Below are positions 6,630 through 6,972 of a DNA stretch of 19,536 nt, in pieces (position 1 is the stretch's first letter; each line of letters begins with the position of its first letter). A program made the translations under genes and the position numbers. The notes beneath the pieces were generated by a model. It saw only the letters and a list, made by a program, of their open reading frames with translations, was not told where the DNA came from and made no database searches. Origin of the DNA: Thermoproteota archaeon (GTDB lineage Archaea > Thermoproteota > Methanomethylicia > Methanomethylicales > B66-G16); the NCBI GenBank assembly GCA_003649085.1, contig QMQV01000020.1:1-19536 (forward strand), written 5' to 3'.

Positions 6630-6959
6630 CTAGCCGAAGAGTGCGCTTAGGCCTTCAGCTACAGCTTCTTCAGATGCTTCTTCCTTCTTCTCTTCTTCCT
6701 TCTTTTCCTCAGTTGGTTTTTCAGCTGCTGGTGCTGTTCCAGGGGCTGTTGCAGGTGTTACGGCTGGTACAGCTGCAACCGGTAGAGCTGTGGTTTTAAT
6801 AGCTTCGTCAATGTTAACTTCAGAAAGCGCTGCGACAAGGGCTTTAACTTTAACTTCATCGACTTCTATTCCAGCTGCTTGTAGAACTTTCTTGATATTT
6901 TCCTCAGTTATTGGCTGCTTCGCATTATGTAACAGTAGCCCAGCATATATGTACTCGAT
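6630..6959 (-). CDS. rpl12: Ribosomal protein L12 (P1-type stalk protein), AUC start
   Basis: The archaeal P1/L12 acidic stalk protein, which binds as dimers to L10/P0 and recruits translation GTPases. The 109-residue product reads (M)EYIYAGLLLHNAKQPITEE at its N-terminus, has the usual helical dimerisation domain, an Ala/Pro hinge (about 57-80), a Lys/Glu-rich segment and the conserved tail EGLSALFG. The frame between the upstream stop (TAG, 12 bases before the start) and its own stop contains no in-frame ATG, GTG or TTG. The first family residue, always Met, falls on ATC at 6957-6959, seven bases after a good Shine-Dalgarno GAGGTG. It is therefore a real gene that gene finders would miss. 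A G-to-C sequencing error in ATG is the main alternative. It follows rpl10, 68 bases away. Confidence 0.93.
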   Translation of the reverse strand: MEYIYAGLLLHNAKQPITEENIKKVLQAAGIEVDEVKVKALVAALSEVNIDEAIKTTALPVAAVPAVTPATAPGTAPAAEKPTEEKKEEEKKEEASEEAVAEGLSALFG

Positions 6960-6965
6960 TTTAGA

Positions 6966-6972
6966 CCACCTC
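6966..6972 (-). promoter_or_regulatory. Shine-Dalgarno site of rpl12
   Basis: The minus strand reads GAGGTGG, complementary to the usual archaeal 16S 3' end. GAGGTG is separated by seven bases from ATC at 6957-6959, the same spacing that rpl10 has to its TTG. This site fixes the unusual start. The GTG inside it is out of frame and meets TAA after one codon. Confidence 0.7.

What the first reader, a model, noticed from the sequence alone, without database searches (positions are those of the whole stretch)
6957..6972. rpl12 appears to initiate at AUC
The L12 gene is intact and unmistakable, yet its frame has no ATG, GTG or TTG from the upstream stop to its own stop. The invariant Met-Glu-Tyr-Ile-Tyr start of archaeal L12 falls on ATC-GAG-TAC-ATA-TAT, and GAGGTG lies seven bases before it, the same distance as for rpl10's UUG. 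An AUC start on an abundant ribosomal protein would be remarkable: it could be a tuned, initiation-factor-dependent signal. As seen here, gene finders would drop this gene.
Basis: partly seen in the sequence, partly recalled or inferred. Interest (0 to 1): 0.72.

Follow-up and report, generated by a model that had tools for sequence, protein, structure and literature searches.

The report
Archaeal ribosomal stalk gene lacking AUG
A ribosomal protein gene in this archaeon, and in dozens of its relatives, seems to start at AUC or AUA instead of AUG, apparently helped by an unusually strong ribosome landing site, so it looks like neither a sequencing error nor a one-off.

Summary
Minus-strand rpl12 (aP1), 6959..6630, has no ATG, GTG or TTG in its frame; its conserved first codon is ATC, seven bases after GAGGTG.

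Relatives argue against an error. In the class sampled, 27 of 37 readable rpl12 genes have ATC (21) or ATA (6) there; 23 further genomes of the phylum sample do too, 16 of them with no canonical in-frame start. With the window, 51 of 51 such genes have GGTG 6-7 nt upstream. Their Shine-Dalgarno (SD) pairing is far stronger than in 81 canonical-start rpl12 genes (median -16.6 vs -7.3) and stronger than rpl10's in 45 of 47 genomes. In 499 genomes of four other archaeal groups, 80 of 99 hits were opened and none was rpl12.

Best reading: real AUC/AUA initiation supported by an extended SD. It is partly known: the 2009 Staphylothermus marinus genome paper says its rpl12 appears to begin with ATC. 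Apparently new: recurrence across the phylum, the fixed SD architecture, and a second, UspA-like gene with apparent AUU/AUC starts in the class. Regulation is untested.

The parts
6957..6959 (-). AUC start codon of rpl12 (ATC on the minus strand)
   Evidence: Falls on the conserved Met position of archaeal P1; ATC/ATA at the same place in 50 other genomes
6960..6966 (-). 7-nt spacer GTCTAAA between GGTG and the start codon
   Evidence: 6 or 7 nt in 51 of 51 AUA/AUC rpl12 genes
6967..6972 (-). Core of the extended Shine-Dalgarno, GAGGTG (best pairing stretch UAGAGGUGGUCU, -15.5 kcal/mol)
   Evidence: the anti-SD sequence used is recalled
6972..6974 (-). In-frame TAG stop upstream; no canonical start lies between it and ATC
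6630..6959 (-). rpl12 coding sequence (ribosomal stalk protein aP1/L12), 109 codons plus stop
   Evidence: TIGR03685 above cut-off
7028..8044 (-). rpl10 (aP0), start TTG with GAGGTG 7 nt upstream; neighbour used as within-genome control
   Evidence: name from sequence and context

Best explanation
rpl12 in this Methanomethylicia-like archaeon is translated from AUC. The initiator Met-tRNA is placed on a codon that mismatches only at its third base, and the weak pairing is compensated by an unusually long SD:anti-SD duplex at a fixed distance (GGTG, then 6-7 nt). The product would begin Met-Glu-Tyr-Ile-Tyr. Shown by sequence: the codon, its conservation, the lack of alternatives, the SD architecture. 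Inferred: that initiator Met-tRNA decodes it, and that the weak codon plus strong SD sets or modulates stalk-protein output.
For: No canonical start in the frame. 27 of 37 readable rpl12 genes of the class have ATC/ATA; 23 further genomes in the phylum sample do too, 16 with no in-frame canonical start. SD pairing: AUA/AUC median -16.6 (n=51) vs canonical -7.3 (n=81); outside the class -12.7 (n=23) vs -7.1 (n=71). rpl10 SDs do not differ between the two genome sets (-9.7, n=47, vs -8.8, n=22; p 0.64); rpl12's SD beats rpl10's in 45 of 47 AUA/AUC genomes vs 10 of 22 others. GGTG spacing is 6 (34) or 7 (17) in 51 of 51; in the 37 of 81 canonical genes that have a GGTG it spans 3-16. A protein from another contig (P0002; 98% identity over half of the query) also has Ile at that position. 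The S. marinus authors reached the same reading from alignment (PMC2678158, passages).
Against: No N-terminal peptide, ribosome profiling or reporter data were available, and no reads. The comparisons are not phylogenetically independent, and 70 of the 81 canonical genes come from genomes preselected by a DTG pattern match. In the 27 class relatives an in-frame GTG lies nine bases upstream, and 7 of the 23 others also have an in-frame canonical codon upstream, so for them an N-terminal extension is not formally excluded.
Confidence: 0.9

Rival explanations
1. Sequencing or assembly error: the true codon is ATG.
For: No reads can be examined here, and no genome is held for the window.
Against: Related genomes have ATC/ATA at the same codon. 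P0002, from another contig, keeps Ile there. The S. marinus paper reports ATC for a completely sequenced genome.
Confidence: 0.02
2. In the class relatives translation starts at the in-frame GTG nine bases upstream (Met-Ile-Lys-Ile-Glu-Tyr...), and AUC is an internal Ile codon; the window has lost that start and uses something unrecognised.
For: GTG is present in 27 of 27 AUA/AUC class relatives. Some database proteins begin with the residue of that codon or of the TTG two codons further up (P0014, P0008).
Against: The GTG lies inside the SD (GGGGGTGAT or GGAGGTGAT), and being in frame follows from a 6-nt spacer. Codons -3 and -2 hardly vary (GTG 27 of 27, ATT 26 of 27) while codons 2-6 vary almost only synonymously, as coding sequence does. 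The window (spacer 7) and 16 other genomes have no such option. As an ordinary Ile codon, codon 1 should sometimes be ATT: codon 4 is ATT in 19 of 51, codon 1 in 0 of 51.
Confidence: 0.06
3. The start is real but the codon is neutral drift: with so strong an SD several AUN codons work, and AUC/AUA has no regulatory meaning.
For: One most-parsimonious history has 12 changes at codon 1, three of them ATA to ATG, so ATG is not forbidden. A second gene in the class has ATA, ATC, ATT and TTG at its start position.
Against: ATT was not seen in rpl12 (0 of 132 read), and ATC/ATA holds in all 23 taxa of one clade and 16 of 17 of another. The SD is strengthened at rpl12, not at rpl10.
Confidence: 0.4

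Closest known systems
Staphylothermus marinus rpl12 (Smar_1096), Anderson et al. 2009, PMC2678158
   Same: Same gene, ATC start inferred from alignment (passages read)
   Different: A two-sentence remark on one species; the passages seen do not discuss relatives, the SD or the AUA form
Bacterial infC (IF3) AUU start with IF3 self-regulation (passage in PMC9410913; Butler et al. 1987 seen only as a reference title)
   Same: A start codon differing from AUG in the third base, in a translation-apparatus gene
   Different: Different gene and domain of life; IF3 itself reads start codons, L12 does not; no feedback shown here; AUU not seen in rpl12
Chloroplast non-AUG start said to require an extended SD in tobacco (end of a reference title seen; psbC and GUG recalled)
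   Same: Non-AUG start coupled to an extended SD
   Different: GUG, chloroplast, not a ribosomal protein

Membership tests
Archaeal ribosomal protein P1/L12 (TIGR03685) | Full-length match to the family model above its cut-off | tested here: met
   127.7 bits vs cut-off 100, residues 2-109
Archaeal ribosomal protein P1/L12 (TIGR03685) | Gene lies directly downstream of rpl10 in the L11-L1-L10-L12 order | tested here: met
   ORFs at 9200-8703, 8699-8046, 8044-7028, then 6959-6630, all minus strand; neighbour names from sequence
rpl12 with AUC/AUA start, as remarked on in S. marinus | No in-frame canonical start; alignment places the start on ATC/ATA | tested here: met
   PMC2678158
infC-type start-codon autoregulation | Recurrent third-base near-cognate start codon | tested here: met
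   51 of 132 rpl12 genes read are ATC/ATA (the set was not a random sample)
infC-type start-codon autoregulation | Gene product itself discriminates against that start codon | tested here: not met
   Product is the stalk protein P1, not an initiation-fidelity factor; any link would be indirect
infC-type start-codon autoregulation | Changing the codon to AUG abolishes feedback | not testable with these tools
   Needs genetics

The most novel reading that the evidence does not exclude
A conserved archaeal counterpart of the bacterial infC device: stalk-protein synthesis is tied to the stringency of start-codon selection (aIF1 dependent) through an AUC/AUA codon balanced by a near-maximal SD, so that output of the six-copy stalk protein tracks the state of the initiation machinery.
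Probability: 0.2. Interest if true: 0.85.

Novelty: new variant of a known kind. Interest (0 to 1): 0.6.

Why it matters
Archaeal genes are usually annotated with AUG, GUG or UUG starts. A deeply shared AUC/AUA start on a ribosomal protein needed in six copies per ribosome, with a matching SD signature, makes it testable whether archaea use start-codon strength to control ribosome-component supply. Practically, gene callers limited to ATG/GTG/TTG will miss or mis-start this gene in many genomes, and S. marinus gives a cultured test organism.

Tried and rejected
Sequencing error: disfavoured by relatives. Upstream GTG start: disfavoured. A canonical start further down: impossible in the window. 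Unusual initiator tRNA: looked for in 400 kb of G175 only; the one tRNA-Met found there looks like the elongator by recalled features, so nothing was learned. Hunt for other non-canonical starts by comparing G175 with G081: too noisy, because the genomes are so close that antisense frames align; replaced by SD-signature scans. 8,000 of the 400,000 bases of G175 read N. Plasmid collection search: only distant haloarchaeal matches. Family-level relatives of G006: two of three genomes gave no rpl12 match, so that AUA case has no close comparison. Names of the class and phylum come from record titles and recall.

Full report
What is there. On the minus strand, rpl12 runs from ATC (6959-6957) to TAG (6632-6630) and gives a 109-residue protein, IEYIYAGLLLH...LSALFG. 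It passes NCBI's archaeal P1 model and lies after genes that read as rpl11, rpl1 and rpl10. The frame is closed by TAG at 6974-6972 and holds no ATG, GTG or TTG. GAGGTG precedes ATC by seven bases, as at rpl10's TTG.

Relatives. A scan of genome contigs kept the best 80 of 129 relatives: first codon ATG 62, ATC 8, ATA 2, TTG 6, GTG 1, and TCA in one locus (L041) whose match began at residue 3 and whose start I did not resolve. In the class of G001 (40 genomes, mostly Methanomethylicota- and Nezhaarchaeota-titled where titles are known; 38 with a match, one only partial) 37 genes could be read: 21 ATC, 6 ATA, 6 TTG, 4 ATG. In 398 genomes of the phylum of G006, a pattern for Ile-Glu-Tyr-[Val/Ile/Met]-Tyr-[Ala/Ser] plus inspection found rpl12 with ATC/ATA in 50 genomes: the 27 just named and 23 others; 11 rows were not opened. 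For comparison, 274 of the same 398 genomes match the ATG/GTG/TTG form of that pattern, which is not specific to rpl12 (its row list was cut). In 499 genomes of four other archaeal groups (148, 148, 116, 87) there were 99 matching rows; I opened 80 and none was rpl12. I did not measure how many of those 499 carry an rpl12 with this motif, so the absence is only indicative.

No alternative start. Of the 23 genomes outside the class, 16 have no in-frame ATG, GTG or TTG between the upstream stop and the ATA/ATC; seven do. In the 27 class relatives a GTG lies nine bases upstream in frame, inside the SD. There codons -3 and -2 are nearly fixed (GTG 27 of 27, ATT 26 of 27), -4 is GGG or GAG, -5 is TTG in 25, and -1 varies (K, N, S, L); codons 2-6 vary almost only synonymously, with Ile/Val at codon 4. 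That fits an SD next to a coding region. The window has one more spacer base, so its GTG is out of frame, which makes it a useful discriminator within the class.

Architecture. I compared 51 AUA/AUC genes with 81 canonical ones. Of the canonical set, 70 come, where 80 genomes preselected by the DTG pattern all matched and 70 were read (30 loci, 40 fetched stretches; 10 not fetched); ten are class genomes and one is G007. SD pairing energy is -17.5 to -10.6 (median -16.6) against -13.0 to -0.1 (median -7.3). Outside the class it is -12.7 (n=23) against -7.1 (n=71). rpl10 shows no such difference (-9.7, n=47, against -8.8, n=22; p 0.64), and rpl12's SD is stronger than rpl10's in 45 of 47 AUA/AUC genomes but 10 of 22 others (rpl10 starts were taken as the nearest canonical codon). 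GGTG lies 6 or 7 nt from the start in 51 of 51; in the 37 of 81 canonical genes that have a GGTG it lies 3-16 nt away. The genes are related by descent, so p values overstate; the rpl10 control is the fairest.

Codon choice. ATT is absent at codon 1 (0 of 51) though codon 4 is ATT in 19 of 51, and 75 of 294 other Ile codons in these genes are ATT. On an rpl10+rpl12 tree of the 70 of 132 loci in which rpl10 was found (62 dropped), one most-parsimonious history has 12 changes: ATG to ATA 2, ATG to ATC 2, ATA to ATC 3, ATC to ATA 1, ATA to ATG 3, ATG to TTG 1. The state is therefore old within at least two clades, changes between AUA and AUC, and can go back to AUG; the three returns to ATG speak against a strict ban on AUG. 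The window sits at the base of the class's ATC clade with weak support (0.521).

Specificity. A scan for GGTG, 6-7 nt, ATA/ATC and an open frame of at least 60 codons gave 8 hits in 400 kb of G175, 12 in 400 kb of G081 and 1 in the window; among those printed (few or no upstream alternatives: 3, 4 and 1) rpl12 alone combined a strong SD with lack of another start. A wider scan (5-8 nt, ATT included, 50 codons, SD at most -10) gave 16 hits in G175 and 23 in G035, most of them deep inside longer frames. Besides rpl12, one G175 frame (327755 in the joined stretch, ATT, in-frame GTG nine bases upstream) and in G035 a UspA-like gene share the geometry. The UspA-like gene matches in 21 of 40 class genomes; in 21 loci read (one more cut by an edge) the start position holds TTG 11, ATC 5, ATT 3, ATA 2, and three (L443 ATT, L448 ATT, L452 ATC) have an in-frame stop one or two codons upstream and no canonical start between. 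So AUH initiation does not look strictly unique to rpl12 in this class, which favours a general tolerance given a strong SD over a purely rpl12-specific device.

Prior knowledge. The S. marinus genome paper states that L12ae (Smar_1096) has no valid start codon and appears to begin with ATC (PMC2678158; passages). Literature searches (20 of 56 listed; 10 of 10; 1 of 1; 14 of 14; 12 of 31; 10 of 10; 15 of 34) listed no other paper that I recognised as reporting this; the library lacks most subscription journals. Reviews PMC7531240 and PMC8211752, seen as passages, do not mention it there. [quoted passage not shown] The archaeal stalk is aP0 with three aP1 dimers (PMC6791870, passage). infC's AUU and IF3 self-regulation: PMC9410913, passage.

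Mechanism and judgement. Shown by sequence: codon, conservation, absence of alternatives, SD signature. Inferred: decoding by initiator Met-tRNA with a third-base mismatch stabilised by the long SD duplex. Open: whether the weak codon regulates stalk supply or is tolerated drift. I put about 0.9 on AUC initiation and about 0.2 on an infC-like regulatory role.

Noticed in passing
L441-L461 (UspA-like gene; e.g. L443, L448, L452): A UspA-like gene in the class has ATT, ATC or ATA where relatives have TTG, after an AGGTG-type SD; three copies have no canonical in-frame start. Family label is weak (NCBIfam matches below cut-off).
   Followed up: partly
L213, about 10815 (G175 contig 1, about 950815, minus strand): A 75-codon frame conserved in G081 has no ATG/GTG/TTG before codon 54 in either genome; its true start is unclear.
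   Followed up: no
L427, about 14704 (G035 400-kb coordinate 134703): A frame resembling an XTP/HAM1 pyrophosphatase (recalled resemblance) has ATT 6 nt after GGTG, with an in-frame GTG nine bases upstream; start ambiguous.
   Followed up: no
L227, about 7756 (G175 400-kb coordinate 327755): A 267-codon frame has ATT 6 nt after a GGGGTG-type SD (-14.7), with an in-frame GTG nine bases upstream; start ambiguous.
   Followed up: no
window 888-9836: Genes that read as LeuRS, AlaRS, rpl12, rpl10, rpl1, rpl11 and NusG/Spt5 (names recalled from sequence) run on the minus strand with mostly short gaps; the mechanical GTG starts of LeuRS and AlaRS have only weak SD pairing.
   Followed up: no
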